From Bacillus sp. AFS059628 (lineage in GTDB: Bacteria; Bacillota; Bacilli; Bacillales; Bacillaceae_G), in NCBI RefSeq assembly GCF_002571225.1, contig NZ_NVEC01000030.1, positions 32,354-66,772 on the forward strand: a stretch of DNA of 34,419 nucleotides, read 5' to 3'. The notes beneath the pieces are model-generated. The model was not told the origin of the DNA, did no database searches, and worked only from the letters and a program-made list of their open reading frames with translations. The position numbers were made by a program, and so were the translations under genes. This document shows, in pieces, positions 1,197 to 21,408 of the stretch (positions are counted from its first letter, which is position 1; each line of letters opens with the position of its first letter).

Positions 1197-1330
1197 GTTT
1201 TGGAAAAAATTATTTGAAGAGGGGGATAGATACACAGTAAACAAGAAGGAGAAAACAATTTAAGCAGAAATTTTACTTGTTTATAACCAACTAGGAATAA
1301 TAAAGTATGTAAATGAACATGGAAATAAGA

Positions 1331-1361
1331 AAGCCGTATCCAAAAGGATACGGCTTTTTTT
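1331..1361 (+). terminator. Intrinsic terminator
   Basis: Perfect 11-bp stem AAGCCGTATCC / GGATACGGCTT with an AAAA loop and a following T-run. It stands about 220 bases after the ankyrin gene with no clear gene directly before it. It could end read-through transcription or a short RNA from 1200-1330. Confidence 0.85.
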
Positions 1362-1443: not shown

Positions 1444-1527
1444 TTATTTGTTTAACTCCATTGCAACTTGTTTGCCATTTACGAAAACCTCTGCCACTGC
1501 TACCATAACTTCCATCACTTTTTTCAT
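1444..1527 (-). CDS. 27-aa micropeptide, copy 1 (not recognised)
   Basis: ATG at 1527, stop TAA at 1444. An AAGGAGAG ribosome site (plus-strand 535-542 of the 1500s, i.e. 1535-1542) lies 7 bases upstream. The peptide begins MKKVMEVMVAVAEV and ends VNGKQVAMELNK. A paralog at 13726-13809 is identical at 22 of 27 positions. The five differences are mostly conservative (M/I, V/M, F/L, A/T), and further codons differ silently (7, 11, 18, 24, 26), which suggests the protein itself is under selection. There is no signal peptide or obvious membrane segment; the centre alternates Val and Ala and may form a short beta or amphipathic element. The promoter module upstream is shared with two other micro-genes in the window. 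I do not recognise the family and assign no function. Confidence 0.75.
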   Translation of the reverse strand: MKKVMEVMVAVAEVFVNGKQVAMELNK

Positions 1528-1567: not shown

Positions 1568-1631
1568 AGTATAAGGAAATATAGCAATCGCAACTATCGA
1601 ATTGGATGACAAGAGACTTACATTGTTGTAA
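1568..1631 (-). promoter_or_regulatory. Shared micropeptide promoter module, copy 1
   Basis: Read on the minus strand: a TTACA-ACAA-TGTAA dyad (1618-1631), GTCAT (1606-1610), TCGATAGT (1593-1600) and a -10 TATACT (1568-1573). Distances to the -10 match the other two copies exactly: 44 bp to the dyad and 19 bp to the TCGATAGT block. The -35 is not TTGACA-like, so an activator is likely. The -10 overlaps a second small dyad (TACT..AGTA). Confidence 0.75.
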
Positions 1632-2483: not shown

Positions 2484-2593
2484 AAGCAAAATTTAAGGAA
2501 GAGTTTTTATAATAAGTCTTTCAAATTTTATATCAAAAAAACGTTAAAATGTAATTATAAATAGAATCGAACAATATGGTGGAAGGTGAGAAT

Positions 2594-3265
2594 ATGCGCT
2601 TACTCGTAGTAGAAGATAATGCTTCGTTATTAGAGTCTATCGTACAAATTTTGCGTGATGAATTTGAAGTGGATACAGCGTTAAATGGAGAAGATGGGTT
2701 GTTTTTAGCACTACAAAACATTTATGATGCAATTTTGCTTGATGTGATGATGCCAGAGATGGATGGATTTGAAGTGATTCAAAAAATACGTGATGAAAAG
2801 ATTGAAACACCAGTCCTGTTTTTAACAGCGAGAGATTCTTTAGAAGATCGGGTGAAGGGATTGGATTTTGGTGGAGATGACTATATCGTTAAGCCGTTTC
2901 AGGCTCCAGAATTAAAAGCAAGAATTCGTGCTTTGTTACGAAGAAGTGGTAGTCTAACAACAAAGCAGACCATTCGCTATAAAGGGATTGAATTGTTCGG
3001 AAAAGATAAAGATGTTCAAGTAGATGGACAACGTATGAAGTTAACATTAAAACAATATGAGCTTCTAGAGTACCTTGTTCAAAATAGCGGAAAGATTTTA
3101 ATGCGTGAACAAATTTTTGATCGCGTCTGGGGATTTGATTCAGATACAACAGTAGCGATTGTAGAAGTGTATGTACATCATTTACGTAAAAAATTAGAGC
3201 CATTTGGTTATCAGAAAGATATTCAAACTGTTCGTGGTATTGGATATATATTGAAAGAACAATGA
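2594..3265 (+). CDS. OmpR-family response regulator
   Basis: A 223-aa DNA-binding response regulator. The ATG at 2594 (GGAAGGTGAG ribosome site) is preferred over the in-frame ATG at 2576, because the receiver domain begins at once (M-R-L-L-V-V-E-D). The receiver has acidic residues Glu7/Asp8, phospho-acceptor Asp50 (L-L-D-V-M-M-P), Thr78 (L-T-A-R) and Lys100 (V-K-P-F). The C-terminal winged helix has the OmpR-type end (V-Y-V-H-H-L-R-K-K-L, R-G-I-G-Y). It overlaps the kinase gene by four bases (ATGA), so the two are translationally coupled. The signal and target genes are unknown. The downstream repeat-protein/peptidase unit is an obvious candidate target but has its own transcription start region. 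Confidence 0.93.
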   Translation: MRLLVVEDNASLLESIVQILRDEFEVDTALNGEDGLFLALQNIYDAILLDVMMPEMDGFEVIQKIRDEKIETPVLFLTARDSLEDRVKGLDFGGDDYIVKPFQAPELKARIRALLRRSGSLTTKQTIRYKGIELFGKDKDVQVDGQRMKLTLKQYELLEYLVQNSGKILMREQIFDRVWGFDSDTTVAIVEVYVHHLRKKLEPFGYQKDIQTVRGIGYILKEQ

Positions 3266-13637: not shown

Positions 13638-13669
13638 AAAAGCAGTGCCTAAAGAGGCACTGCTTTTTT
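13638..13669 (+). terminator. Intrinsic terminator
   Basis: AAAAGCAGTGCCT / AGGCACTGC(TTTT) stem with an AAAG loop and T6, right after the malic enzyme stop. Confidence 0.92.
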
Positions 13670-13725: not shown

Positions 13726-13809
13726 CTATTTATTTAATTCCATTGCAACTTGTTTACCATTTACTAAAACCTCAGTTACTGCTACGATCACTTCTATCAT
13801 TTTTTTCAT
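13726..13809 (-). CDS. 27-aa micropeptide, copy 2 (not recognised)
   Basis: ATG at 13809, stop TAG at 13726, with a GGAGAG-type ribosome site just upstream. It begins MKKMIEVIVAVTEV and ends VNGKQVAMELNK, so it is a clear paralog of the peptide at 1444-1527. The last 12 residues are identical although several codons there differ silently (GGT/GGC, GAA/GAG, AAT/AAC), and the stops differ (TAG/TAA). Downstream sequence is also alike in the two copies (GAGATAAG-x-x-ATCAAAA-x-AATGAAG-x-AGT, plus-strand reading), so the whole locus was duplicated rather than just a promoter. It lies convergent to the malic enzyme gene and next to a minus-strand lipoprotein gene. The function is unknown. Confidence 0.75.
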   Translation of the reverse strand: MKKMIEVIVAVTEVLVNGKQVAMELNK

Positions 13810-13842: not shown

Positions 13843-13906
13843 AGTATAAGAGAAGAGAGGTACTTAAACTATCGAAGTATATGACTTAGAAATTACATTG
13901 TTGTAA
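13843..13906 (-). promoter_or_regulatory. Shared micropeptide promoter module, copy 2
   Basis: Read on the minus strand: dyad TTACAACAATGTAA (13893-13906), GTCAT (13881-13885), TCGATAGT (13868-13875) and -10 TATACT (13843-13848). Spacing is identical to copies 1 and 3. It lies between the micropeptide and the 3' end of the lipoprotein gene (13930), so it can only serve the micropeptide. Confidence 0.75.
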
Positions 13907-17052: not shown

Positions 17053-17565
17053 TTATTTATTTTCGTCTAAGAATAAGACCATATGCTCTTCGTCCCAATA
17101 TTGTCCGTTATATTTTAATGAACGTTCTTGTACACCGAATGTTTTAAATCCTAATGATTCATAAAGTTTTTTTGCTCCATCGTTGCCGACAACAACATCA
17201 AGCATAACTTGTTCTACCTCTAAAGATTTAGCAAGTTCAAGACATTCTTTAATAAGTGCTTTTCCTGCTCCAAGTCCGCGTGCTTTTGGAGACACATATA
17301 CAGAACCGATTTTAGCTTTATGTTCTTGTTTTACATATGGTTTCGTTTCCAGTGTTGCAACCCCGATTAATTGTCCATCTTTAAATGCACCTAGCGTATA
17401 GTTTTCATCTTGTGCTAATTTTTGTGCTTTATATTCAATCGCACACTCTTTATTAATAATATCTTCATAAGAAGAGCTGAAAGCTTCAGGGTTTTGCTTT
17501 AAACCTTCTACACGAAGTTCTAAGTAAATTTCCGCTTCGTCTTTTGTTAATACATGGATATCCAA
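17053..17565 (-). CDS. GNAT acetyltransferase, copy A
   Basis: A 170-aa protein with a TTG start at 17565, supported by GGAGGG (plus-strand 17574-17579) 8 bases upstream. It is a full GNAT domain. The beta-hairpin and acetyl-CoA loop read V-Y-V-S-P-K-A-R-G-L-G-A-G-K-A-L (R/Q-x-x-G-x-G/A) in mid-protein, followed by V-V-V-G-N-D-G-A-K-K-L-Y-E-S-L-G-F, the classic motif B end. The acceptor substrate cannot be told. A close paralog lies at 20703-21209 with near-identical key segments (E-A-F-S-S-S-Y-E-D, Q-Y-W-D-E-E-H-M-V-L-F-L). It is monocistronic, between terminators. Confidence 0.92.
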   Translation of the reverse strand: MDIHVLTKDEAEIYLELRVEGLKQNPEAFSSSYEDIINKECAIEYKAQKLAQDENYTLGAFKDGQLIGVATLETKPYVKQEHKAKIGSVYVSPKARGLGAGKALIKECLELAKSLEVEQVMLDVVVGNDGAKKLYESLGFKTFGVQERSLKYNGQYWDEEHMVLFLDENK

Positions 17566-19233: not shown

Positions 19234-19905
19234 TTATTCACTTTTCCATTTATATCCGACTTTATAGACAGTTTCTAAGTAATTTTCAACTGGAAATCCT
19301 TTTTTGCGTAATTTATCACGGATATTGCGAATATGTGAATCGATTGTTCTATATTCAATGTCTGTTTCATAACCCCAAATTTTTTCGATTAAATCATCTC
19401 GGCTATAAGCACGATTTGTATTTTGTAAAAATAGTCCAAGTAAAGAAAACTCGATAGGAGTTAGTGAAATTTTTTCGTCATATACTGTGACAGTATGTTT
19501 CGTTTTATCCCACTCAATACCATTGAAGCTAACGAAGCCATCTTTCTTTGTACGGCGTAATATAGCCTCAATTCTTGCGACTAATACATGCTCATCAAAT
19601 GGTTTTGTAATATAGTCGTCCGCGCCCATAGTGAGGCCTTTCACCATATCGTAATTTTGGTTACGAGCTGTTAGCATAATAATTGGAACGTTGGAAATTT
19701 GACGGATTTGATAGCAAGTATCCCAGCCATCCATATTCGGCATCATAACATCTAACAAAATAATATCGAAGTCTTTTTGTTCTATTAACTTTAGCGCTTC
19801 AAGGCCAGAGGTAGCTTTCATACAAAAATAGCCACGAGGACTTAAGAACAGATCTAATAATCGTAACATACGTTCTTCATCGTCTACTAATAAAATTTTT
19901 ACCAT
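19234..19905 (-). CDS. OmpR-family response regulator
   Basis: A 223-aa regulator. ATG 19905 is preferred because the receiver starts immediately (M-V-K-I-L-L-V-D-D-E) and GGGGTG lies about 10 bases upstream; a GTG at 19917 overlaps that ribosome site. The receiver has Asp8/Asp9, phospho-acceptor Asp52 (L-L-D-V-M-M-P), Thr in L-T-A-R and Lys in T-K-P-F. The C-terminal winged helix ends T-V-Y-K-V-G-Y-K-W, in the OmpR/ResD/PhoB class. It is the first gene of a minus-strand operon with the kinase. It is divergent from a structured leader and a 40-aa membrane protein that could be a target. It lies between micropeptide copies 2 and 3, whose promoter regulator is unidentified. Confidence 0.93.
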   Translation of the reverse strand: MVKILLVDDEERMLRLLDLFLSPRGYFCMKATSGLEALKLIEQKDFDIILLDVMMPNMDGWDTCYQIRQISNVPIIMLTARNQNYDMVKGLTMGADDYITKPFDEHVLVARIEAILRRTKKDGFVSFNGIEWDKTKHTVTVYDEKISLTPIEFSLLGLFLQNTNRAYSRDDLIEKIWGYETDIEYRTIDSHIRNIRDKLRKKGFPVENYLETVYKVGYKWKSE

Positions 19906-20052
19906 AATCTTGTGCACCCCAAACTGTTCATTCTACTTGTATAGTTTACATGAAAATAATAAAAAACTCTTTTTATGTGATTGGGTGGAAGAGTTATTTT
20001 TCGTTCAGAGTAATTGACATAAAAAATGCACTAGTTTTGCACAACTATTTTT

Positions 20053-20235: not shown

Positions 20236-20358
20236 ATGAATCCAAAAGAAGAAATTTCAAAAAAAGAAAAGCAAGATCGTAATACGGTTGTCATGTGCAT
20301 TGCCGTATCTATGGTTATTATTATAAGTTGTGTAAATAAAATTTTGGGGATTTTATAA
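20236..20358 (+). CDS. 40-aa single-pass membrane protein (not recognised)
   Basis: The ATG at 20236 follows an AAGGAGAT ribosome site at ideal distance, and a strong terminator follows six bases after the stop, so this is a well-delimited gene despite its size. The protein has a charged N-terminal half (M-N-P-K-E-E-I-S-K-K-E-K-Q-D-R) and then one membrane helix (about residues 17-40: V-V-M-C-I-A-V-S-M-V-I-I-I-S-C). Two Cys lie in or near the helix. It is placed behind a structured leader and divergent from an OmpR-type regulator. Small proteins of this plan often modulate a membrane partner, possibly the adjacent kinase, but that is speculation. Confidence 0.72.
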   Translation: MNPKEEISKKEKQDRNTVVMCIAVSMVIIISCVNKILGIL

Positions 20359-20363
20359 TATAA

Positions 20364-20402
20364 AAAAAGCTTATTGCTTCTTAAGAAGCAATAAGCTTTT
20401 TT
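20364..20402. terminator. Bidirectional terminator between two micro-genes
   Basis: A nearly loopless palindrome AAGCTTATTGCTTC-TTAA-GAAGCAATAAGCTT flanked by A7 on the left and T6 on the right. It ends both the 40-aa gene (plus) and the 29-aa gene (minus). Confidence 0.92.
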
Positions 20403-20421
20403 CATTATTAGAGGAATCGTT

Positions 20422-20511
20422 CTATATGATAAACCAAGGTAAAATTGCTAACCCAGAAGTCACAATCGCTGTAGTACATATTAAAAGCATAGCTCGTTTG
20501 TTTTGTTTCAT
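20422..20511 (-). CDS. 29-aa hydrophobic micropeptide under the shared promoter
   Basis: ATG at 20511, stop TAG at 20422, with AAAGGAGAA upstream. The peptide has a basic start (M-K-Q-N-K-R-A-M) and is then wholly hydrophobic (L-L-I-C-T-T-A-I-V-T-S-G-L-A-I-L-P-W-F-I-I), so it is a single membrane span or an unprocessed signal-like peptide. It is not similar to the two 27-aa peptides. Its promoter has the same dyad, central block and -10 at exactly the same spacing, and a bidirectional terminator lies just downstream. The function is unknown. Membrane regulator, toxin-like or signalling peptides are all compatible with the sequence. Confidence 0.7.
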   Translation of the reverse strand: MKQNKRAMLLICTTAIVTSGLAILPWFII

Positions 20512-20584: not shown

Positions 20585-20648
20585 AGTATAATGAATGGAA
20601 AGGTTTGGTACGATCGATAAAGGTGACATGAAGATTACATTGTTGTGA
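20585..20648 (-). promoter_or_regulatory. Shared micropeptide promoter module, copy 3
   Basis: Read on the minus strand: TCACAACAATGTAA (20635-20648, one change from the perfect dyad), GTCAC (20623-20627), TCGATCGT (20610-20617) and -10 TATACT (20585-20590). The 44-bp and 19-bp spacings are the same as in copies 1 and 2. The -10 sits in a perfect TATACTT-T-TAGTATA-type palindrome. The 5' UTR is longer here (about 70 bases). Confidence 0.75.
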
Positions 20649-20702: not shown

Positions 20703-21209
20703 TTAATCATTTAAGAATAGAACCATATGTTCCTCGTCCCAATATTGGCCATTATGTTTTAATGAACGCTCTTGTACGCCGTAAGTTTGGAAGCCTAATG
20801 ACTCATATAATTTTTTTGCGGCATCGTTACCAACTACAACATCGAGCATAAGTTGTTCTACATGTAATTTATCGGCATTTTCAATAATTGCTTTAATGAG
20901 AGCTCGTCCTGCTCCAAGGCCACGCGCTTTTGGGGAAACGAAAACGGAACCGATTTTTGCTTTATGTTCTTGTTTAATGAAAGGCTTTGTTTCTAAAGTA
21001 GCAATGCCGATTAAATCGTTATCTTTGAAGACCCCTAGAGTATACTTATCCGGATTGCTTAATCGTTTTGCCATAGCAGCTACAGGATTCTCATGTTTCA
21101 GAACATCTTCATAAGAAGAGCTAAAAGCTTCCGGGTTCTTCGTTAAACCTTCCATACAAACTTTTAAATATATTTCTGCGTCCTCTGTCGTTAATAAGCG
21201 AATTTCCAT
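20703..21209 (-). CDS. GNAT acetyltransferase, copy B
   Basis: A 168-aa protein. ATG 21209 is supported by AAGGAGGT just upstream; the frame stays open 14 codons further but without a ribosome site. Complete GNAT domain with V-F-V-S-P-K-A-R-G-L-G-A-G-R-A-L and V-V-V-G-N-D-A-A-K-K-L-Y-E-S-L-G-F. It is a paralog of copy A (17053-17565), with the same length, the same motifs and mostly conservative changes. The most divergent part lies around residues 48-62, where the acceptor side is expected. The substrate is unknown. The two copies flank the second two-component system, so duplication followed by insertion or rearrangement is possible. Confidence 0.92.
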   Translation of the reverse strand: MEIRLLTTEDAEIYLKVCMEGLTKNPEAFSSSYEDVLKHENPVAAMAKRLSNPDKYTLGVFKDNDLIGIATLETKPFIKQEHKAKIGSVFVSPKARGLGAGRALIKAIIENADKLHVEQLMLDVVVGNDAAKKLYESLGFQTYGVQERSLKHNGQYWDEEHMVLFLND

Positions 21210-21408
21210 AGTTGTAACCTCCTTGGTCGATTTCAAATAAAATAGATCCATTACTTTTATAAGATTGAGTATGCGTTTTGTTAGCAGTCTCTTTTAATTT
21301 GTAAAAGAATGAAAAGATATATGCTACAATGTTTTGTTTTTTAATATGTAATGAAATTATATATTAACTTTATTAACTATTCAAGTGTTTAATATATTAC
21401 ATTTTCAT

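What the first reader, a model, noticed from the sequence alone, without database searches (positions are those of the whole stretch)
1568..1631. One rigid promoter module drives three micro-genes spread over 19 kb
Three minus-strand promoters (1568-1631, 13843-13906, 20585-20648) share four blocks at identical distances: dyad TTACAACAATGTAA, GTCA, TCGATAGT/TCGATCGT and TATACT. There are exactly 44 bp from the -10 to the dyad and 19 bp from the -10 to the TCGAT block in all three, while the bases between are not conserved. The dyad centre is near -63 and the -35 is non-consensus, which suggests class I activation by one factor, or an unusual sigma requirement. Each promoter is followed only by a gene under 30 codons. 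A dedicated regulon of micropeptides would be new to me. Either OmpR-type regulator in this window could be the activator, but nothing proves it.
Basis: seen in the sequence. Interest (0 to 1): 0.85.

Follow-up and report, generated by a model that had tools for sequence, protein, structure and literature searches.

The report
Antibiotic-stress promoters driving three tiny genes
Three matching promoters in this bacterial DNA look like those that BceR-type antibiotic-sensing regulators switch on, and each drives a gene for a peptide of fewer than 30 amino acids; the promoter type is known, but stand-alone tiny peptides as its targets may be new.

Summary
In detail: three minus-strand promoters share a dyad, GTCA, TCGATNGT and TATACT at identical spacings. 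The module is a known kind, the promoter of Bce/Psd-type antimicrobial-peptide transporters. A matrix from 23 distinct promoters of such transporters in other Bacillales, found through the transporter protein, ranks exactly these three sites first in the window (40.5, 25.1, 21.4; next 6.2; best of 15 random windows 12.6). A degenerate pattern has 87 places in 74 of 397 Bacillales genomes, against 4 control places. Of 80 read, 62 precede an ABC ATPase frame. Neither OmpR-type regulator in the window is BceR-like.

Relatives of the two 27-residue peptides stand behind the same module in four other genomes, are under purifying selection, and the window peptides match no NCBIfam or Pfam family. 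Relatives without the module also exist. Most likely a BceR-like regulator encoded elsewhere induces these peptides under cell-wall antibiotic stress. Regulator, inducer and peptide function are inferred, not shown.

The parts
1568..1631 (-). Module 1: main dyad 1618-1631, GTCA 1607-1610, TCGATAGT 1593-1600, -10 TATACT 1568-1573
   Evidence: top score 40.5 in the window with a matrix from transporter promoters only
1444..1527 (-). Micropeptide gene 1, 27 aa plus stop
   Evidence: alignment; pN below pS against four related genes
1330..1357 (-). Terminator hairpin after gene 1
   Evidence: -20 kcal/mol, z -8.68
13843..13906 (-). Module 2: main dyad 13893-13906, GTCA, TCGATAGT, -10 TATACT 13843-13848
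   Evidence: score 21.4, third in the window
13726..13809 (-). Micropeptide gene 2, 27 aa plus stop, paralogue of gene 1
   Evidence: pN below pS against gene 1 and the G277 relative
13638..13667 (-). Hairpin after gene 2, probable terminator (short T tract)
   Evidence: -20.4 kcal/mol, z -5.70; not flagged by the scan
20585..20648 (-). Module 3: main dyad 20635-20648 (TCACAACAATGTAA), GTCA, TCGATCGT, -10 TATACT 20585-20590
   Evidence: score 25.1, second in the window
20422..20511 (-). Micropeptide gene 3, 29 aa plus stop, one hydrophobic segment, unrelated to genes 1 and 2
   Evidence: no accepted homologue in 397 genomes
20356..20410 (-). Hairpin after gene 3, probable terminator
   Evidence: -27.1 kcal/mol, z -9.74; not flagged by the scan

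Best explanation
The three modules are promoters activated by a BceR-like response regulator (Bce/Psd/Yxd type) encoded elsewhere in the genome. A Bce-type transporter senses a cell-wall-active peptide antibiotic, and its BceS-type kinase phosphorylates the regulator. One regulator dimer binds the TTACA-N4-TGTAA dyad (centre about -63). A second binds the half-sites (T)GTCA and TCGAT, which start 11 and 22 bp after the dyad's right arm, cover the -35 region and help sigma-A polymerase use the TATACT box. Each transcript is probably monocistronic and makes a peptide of 27-29 residues. Genes 1 and 2 encode an amphipathic peptide of a family found in other Bacillales; gene 3 encodes a peptide with one hydrophobic segment. 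The peptides most likely act at the cytoplasmic membrane as accessory or protective factors in the response to antimicrobial peptides. Shown here: promoter class, geometry, conservation of the 27-residue peptide family and its repeated linkage to the module. Inferred: the regulator itself, the inducing signal, binding, and membrane action.
For: A matrix from 23 distinct transporter-gene upstream regions, found by protein and without window DNA or the two motif-found loci, ranks the three modules first to third. 87 places in 74 of 397 genomes against 4 control places. 62 of 80 read are followed within 400 bases by a P-loop ATPase frame. L112 carries a permease whose only solved relatives at E up to 1e-10 are PsdB and BceB and a kinase whose only solved relative at E up to 1e-20 is BceS. 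Modules with GTCA or GTAA, as in the window, lie between kinase and ATPase genes in L294 and L295. Relatives of peptides 1 and 2 (27-35 residues) follow the module in G062, G277, G201 and G357, plus two of 31-32 residues in G277. Those in G277, G201 and G357 are also found by peptide profile alone, though the profile includes the motif-found G062 peptide. pN 0.08-0.29 against pS 0.38-0.89 in 7 comparisons. A published Bce-like consensus, AnnTTACnAnnnnGTnAG (PMC10858260, passages), fits modules 1 and 2 in its inner part.
Against: The window's own genome is not held and I found no close relative of the window in the collections, so a Bce-type system in this organism was not seen. No binding, expression or peptide data. 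The flanking A of the published consensus is absent at all three sites, the final G at modules 2 and 3, and module 3 has TCAC. Of the 14 best peptide-profile loci read (L190-L203), 4 have the module and 10 do not; of the 10, L194, L195, L196 and L200 are clear relatives, L197, L198 and L203 partial ones, and L199, L201 and L202 lie in longer frames. Gene 3 has no homologue, so its translation rests on start, ribosome-binding site and promoter alone. BceRS-like loci L288, L289 and L291 showed no module under my pattern, L290 only a TCACA-type one. NCBIfam gave no named BceR or BceS model for L112 or L268. Four of the 62 ATPase cases belong to the TTTA block group (L246, L248, L249, L251), which may be a different element.
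Confidence: 0.87

Rival explanations
1. One of the two OmpR-type regulators in the window (2576-3265 or 19234-19917) activates the modules.
For: Both are encoded in the window and are of the OmpR/PhoB type.
Against: 29-31% identity to the L112 regulator, while those beside Bce-type transporter genes elsewhere are 37-72% (the 37% one is in G357); kinases with long loops, and the first window kinase has no solved BceS match at E up to 1e-20; the module stands before transporter ATPase genes elsewhere.
Confidence: 0.04
2. Another OmpR-family regulator such as WalR uses the site, since TGTAA-N6-TGTNA resembles the WalR direct repeat (motif recalled).
For: The right dyad arm and the GTCA/GTAA block form an 11-bp direct repeat.
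Against: The recalled WalR box needs A or T where the window has C; the left arm TTACA and the TCGAT block are not part of it; transporter promoters carry the same composite.
Confidence: 0.05
3. The small genes act as RNAs, and the reading frames are incidental.
For: Short transcripts ending in strong hairpins; gene 3 has no accepted homologue.
Against: For genes 1 and 2, pN is well below pS and the peptide pattern is kept in other genomes; each gene has a ribosome-binding-site-like sequence.
Confidence: 0.1
4. The shared layout merely reflects recent duplication of one gene with its promoter, without regulatory meaning.
For: Genes 1 and 2 are paralogues with similar leaders.
Against: Linkers and spacers have diverged while the blocks have not; module 3 drives an unrelated peptide; the same layout precedes non-homologous genes in other genomes.
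Confidence: 0.02

Closest known systems
BceR/PsdR/YxdJ-type promoters of BceAB-like transporters
   Same: Main dyad TNACA-N4-TGTNA, second block at fixed distance over the -35 region, TATACT-like -10
   Different: Here they drive stand-alone genes of 27-29 codons instead of a transporter
VraH, small transmembrane component of VraDEH in Staphylococcus aureus (PMC5786555, passages)
   Same: A very small membrane protein working with a Bce-type transporter
   Different: VraH forms a complex with VraD and VraE; the window genes stand alone; no sequence comparison with VraH was made
[quoted passage not shown] subtilis (PMC3968067, passages)
   Same: A DUF1093 protein follows the module in L168 and a similar-looking one in L242; that YxeA is a DUF1093 protein is recalled
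   Different: About 120 residues; not similar by eye to the window peptides
MadRS regulon of Enterococcus faecalis (PMC10614854, a preprint in PMC; abstract and passages)
   Same: A Bce-type two-component system controlling a network of envelope-defence genes beyond its transporter
   Different: Targets named in the passages seen are madEFG, dlt and mprF; no micropeptides there

Membership tests
BceR-type promoter | Inverted repeat TNACA-N4-TGTNA as main site | tested here: met
   the same dyad at 9 or 10 of 10 positions in 26 of 29 transporter upstream regions
BceR-type promoter | Second block and -10 at fixed distance from the main site | tested here: met
   window spacings as in transporter promoters; 19 or 20 bp to the best -10 in 73 of 80 places
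BceR-type promoter | Published consensus AnnTTACnAnnnnGTnAG (Lacticaseibacillus; PMC10858260, passages) | tested here: inconclusive
   inner part fits modules 1 and 2; flanking A absent in all three, final G only in module 1; module 3 has TCAC
BceR-type promoter | Binding by a phosphorylated BceR-like regulator and induction by a peptide antibiotic | not testable with these tools
   needs DNA-binding and expression data
BceR-type promoter | A Bce-type two-component system and transporter in the same genome | not testable with these tools
   own genome not held
BceR-like regulators (the two in the window) | High similarity to BceR-like regulators, and a short BceS-like kinase without a large extracytoplasmic loop | tested here: not met
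   29-31% identity to the L112 regulator; kinases of 416 and 484 aa with about 110-150 aa between two predicted membrane segments
WalR/YycF box | TGTWAH-N5-TGTWAH (recalled) | tested here: not met
   second half is GTCA in all three modules
VraH-like accessory protein | Small membrane protein acting with a Bce-type transporter | tested here: inconclusive
   no transporter ATPase seen beside the three genes in the frame list; peptide 3 has a hydrophobic segment; no VraH sequence was compared; no Pfam match

The most novel reading that the evidence does not exclude
Bce-type antimicrobial-peptide sensing systems have an unrecognised output layer: several stand-alone micropeptide genes, each with its own BceR-type promoter. 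Some encode a conserved amphipathic family (pattern EV-x3-G-x6-L), others peptides with one hydrophobic segment. They protect the membrane or tune the sensor, and in some lineages are among the main targets of the regulator (5 of the 11 module places in G277 precede frames of 23-37 residues).
Probability: 0.45. Interest if true: 0.75.

Novelty: new variant of a known kind. Interest (0 to 1): 0.6.

Why it matters
Bce-type modules are widespread resistance systems of Firmicutes, usually described as a regulator, a kinase and a transporter. If their regulators also switch on conserved micropeptides too short for annotation pipelines, part of the resistance and sensing response has been overlooked. 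The fixed promoter layout gives a direct way to list such genes in any genome, and the peptide family becomes testable.

Tried and rejected
Exact pattern in genome contigs: 0 hits. Pattern in viral contigs: 13 stretches, no more than chance by a rough estimate of mine; not followed. Plasmids with the region of gene 1, and plasmids and phages with peptide 1: no match. Family of G062: 1 of 26 genomes. Family of G277: 2 of 19 genomes, 12 places, 1 control place. Peptide 3 in 397 genomes: two weak hits, E 0.02 and 0.04, not accepted. At E up to 1 the peptide profile matches in 110 of 397 genomes, many of them short pieces of long frames; only the 14 loci L190-L203 (E up to 0.05) and the second G277 hit were read. 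The first matrix held two motif-found loci (L111, L112); they and one duplicate were left out. L095 and L105 are the same places as in L111 and L112. Whether the half-site type follows a branch of the regulator was not resolved. A plasmid region of Bacillus arachidis (cereus group, recalled) was listed, its promoters not analysed. Taxon of the window: a DNA search against plasmids told nothing. B. cereus AS-48 transcriptome paper (PMC2774856, passages): nothing on these genes in the passages seen. PMC3023708 and PMC3231935: nothing on this motif in the passages seen.

Full report
Observation. The three minus-strand modules are present as described, with identical spacings. The composite ACAACAATGTNA-N7-GTCA-N6-TCGAT occurs three times in the window and never in 100 shuffles. 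The dyad alone, with three mismatches allowed, is only moderately above chance (22 against a mean of 12.0). The frames behind them have 27, 27 and 29 codons and are followed by stable hairpins. No -35/-10 pair using these TATACT boxes reached the scan's threshold.

Geometry. Counting from the first base of the module, the right dyad arm TGTAA starts at offset 9, (T)GTCA at 20 and TCGAT at 31: three elements at 11-bp steps, roughly one helical turn apart, ending over the -35 region. In module 2 the base before GTCA is A. This is read from the sequence.

What kind of promoter it is. The window's genome is not held, and the pattern has no match in genome contigs. A search of 397 Bacillales genomes with two mismatches gave 16 places in 15 genomes and 3 control places; many of the 16 look like chance. 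Several were plainly the module before genes of envelope defence: an ABC ATPase (L105), the end of a histidine kinase gene (L095), phosphatases (L099, L103), and, in L108, a 30-residue relative of the window's 27-residue peptides. The phosphatases match the undecaprenyl-diphosphate phosphatase model of NCBIfam below its cut-off, and the L103 protein matches Pfam PAP2 above its own, so I call them BcrC-like. L112, the wider region of L105, reads regulator, kinase of 340 residues, ATPase, permease of 630 residues; L111 has the same order, but its regulator frame is split in two. The names Bce are mine, from this order and from solved relatives: the L112 permease matches PsdB (E 2.3e-82) and BceB (3e-30), its kinase BceS (1.2e-35), each the only hits at the limits set. 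A permease of L268 also matches PsdB best. NCBIfam names neither regulator nor kinase.

Independent collection. With the L112 permease as query, 48 of 81 genomes had matches. Of 32 loci examined (L111, L112, L117-L146), 29 had a usable upstream region of the ATPase gene; 26 of these held the dyad at 9 or 10 of 10 positions, and L140, L141 and L146 at 8. L144 had no ATPase gene; L133 and L145 had too little upstream DNA.

Independent test. A 64-column matrix from these regions, without the two motif-found loci (24 loci, 23 distinct sequences), scored both strands of the window. The three modules came first, second and third at 40.5, 25.1 and 21.4. The next place (6.2) is the dyad of module 1 read on the other strand; the best of 15 first-order random windows scored 12.6. 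With a larger pseudocount the gap narrows (38.3, 28.4, 24.0; next 11.1; random maximum 19.5), but the order holds.

Survey. TTACA-N4-TGTAA-N7-GNNA-N6-TCGATNG with one mismatch has 87 places in 74 of 397 genomes; the reversed control pattern has 4. I read 80 of the 87 in one script: 62 are followed within 400 bases by a frame with an ABC-type P-loop, most of which begin like the L112 ATPase by eye. The other 18 are: four micropeptide places (L234, L269, two in L270), two lipoproteins (L229, L230), two DUF1093-type proteins (L168 by Pfam; L242 by eye), two ligase-like proteins (L227, L228, by eye), a 46-residue frame (L259), a 351-residue membrane-like protein (L263), a departing ATPase frame (L240), and five cut by a contig end, chance-like or without clear gene (L163, L239, L247, L250, L262). 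The other seven of the 87 are the ATPase of G322 (L112), two phosphatases (G031, G308), a micropeptide and a lipoprotein in G062, a place without clear gene in G277, and one in G018 that was not read. The block after the linker is GAAA in 56 of 80, GTAA in 7, TTTA in 6, GTCA in 5, GTTA in 5 and GATA in 1. GTCA and GTAA, as in the window, occur between kinase and ATPase genes in L294 and L295, so these types too are Bce-type promoters.

The micropeptides. Peptides 1 and 2 are 81% identical. A profile of these two and the G062 peptide found relatives in G277, G201 and G357 with modules 97-104 bases before their starts; in G357 the linker is one base shorter. G277 was taken by me for the nearest relative held because of its module number and some gene content, which is a judgement, not a test; window proteins found no close match in the G277 stretches fetched. 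It has 11 module places, two of them overlapping on opposite strands. Behind them stand three members of the family (27, 31 and 32 residues), a 37-residue and a 23-residue hydrophobic peptide (the latter overlaps a 33-residue frame), a 105-residue membrane-like protein, a lipoprotein, a permease gene followed by a BcrC-like gene, and a transporter pair. In G201 a lipoprotein-like gene starts 36 bases after the micropeptide's stop. The G277 and G062 lipoproteins are Pfam PF17294. In G051, G198 and G224 a 30-residue hydrophobic frame lies between the module and the ATPase gene. Seven pairwise comparisons give pN 0.08-0.29 and pS 0.38-0.89, so the frame is selected as protein; the synonymous sites are near saturation in several pairs. 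The first 16 residues have a helical hydrophobic moment of 0.42 in peptides 1 and 2, compatible with lying on a membrane. Peptide 3 has no accepted relative in 397 genomes. No NCBIfam family matches the three window peptides, and no Pfam family matches peptides 1 and 3 (E up to 1) or 2 (E up to 0.01).

Against my reading. Of the 14 best profile loci, ten lack the module; four of these are clear relatives (L194, L195, L196, L200), so the family is also used under other control. I did not see the Bce-type genes of the window's organism. L288, L289 and L291 carry such genes but showed no module, and L290 only a TCACA-type one. In G277 a window-type module was seen beside such regulator genes at one of two loci (L268, not L291). 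The published consensus fits only in its inner part.

The regulators in the window. They are 31% and 29% identical to the L112 regulator, while those of L294, L295 and L299 are 40, 55 and 54% identical to it and the best in G277, G062, G201 and G357 are 58, 61, 72 and 37%. Their kinases have long predicted extracytoplasmic loops. They are poor candidates.

Literature. PMC10858260 (passages) gives a Bce-like consensus and reports that such regulators also control dlt and mprF. PMC7438565 (passages) mentions the consensus of Dintner et al. 2011 and a putative box before dlt. PMC7002115 (passages) treats BcrC as a secondary bacitracin resistance module. PMC5786555 (passages) describes VraH, PMC3968067 (passages) yxeA, PMC10614854 (abstract and passages) the MadRS network. 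The main-site plus secondary-site model is recalled from Fang et al. 2017, of which I saw only the title. Searches showed no paper whose title or abstract start describes micropeptides under BceR control; several of these lists were capped (for example 20 of 403, 20 of 112, 15 of 148), the library lacks most subscription journals, and de Been et al. 2008 on B. cereus regulator sites was seen only as a reference. Novelty is therefore provisional.

Verdict. The promoter module is a known kind; stand-alone, conserved micropeptide genes as its targets appear to be a new variant.

Noticed in passing
L172, L174, L221: In three genomes a 30-residue hydrophobic frame with a ribosome-binding-site-like sequence lies between the module and the transporter ATPase gene, reminiscent of small accessory proteins of Bce-type transporters.
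   Followed up: partly
L194, L195, L196, L200 (partial: L197, L198): Relatives of the 27-residue peptide without the module; the four full ones are preceded by GGGGAGTGATG. In L194, L195 and L198 genes with a similar start lie just upstream.
   Followed up: partly
L227, L228: Module directly before a gene that looks like a D-Ala-D-Ala ligase by eye, in two genomes; not tested against a family library.
   Followed up: no
L113, L110, L229, L230, L234: Lipoprotein genes repeatedly behind the module; those in L113 and L110 are Pfam PF17294, an uncharacterised family; in L234 one follows the micropeptide gene.
   Followed up: partly
L178 / L185 (G277:C1:2101935-2101985): Two modules overlap on opposite strands at one place, with no clear gene directly behind either.
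   Followed up: no
L240; L111: An ATPase frame behind an intact module departs from the family after its P-loop start (L240); the regulator of L111 is split in two frames. Described only.
   Followed up: no
L246-L251: Six places with a TTTA block and closely similar linkers; four have an ATPase frame with a different start (VKVYGG...) at 36-326 bases behind, printed; perhaps another element.
   Followed up: no
window 17053-17565 and 20703-21251: Two clearly similar acetyltransferase-like genes; the second ends 54 bases before module 3.
   Followed up: no
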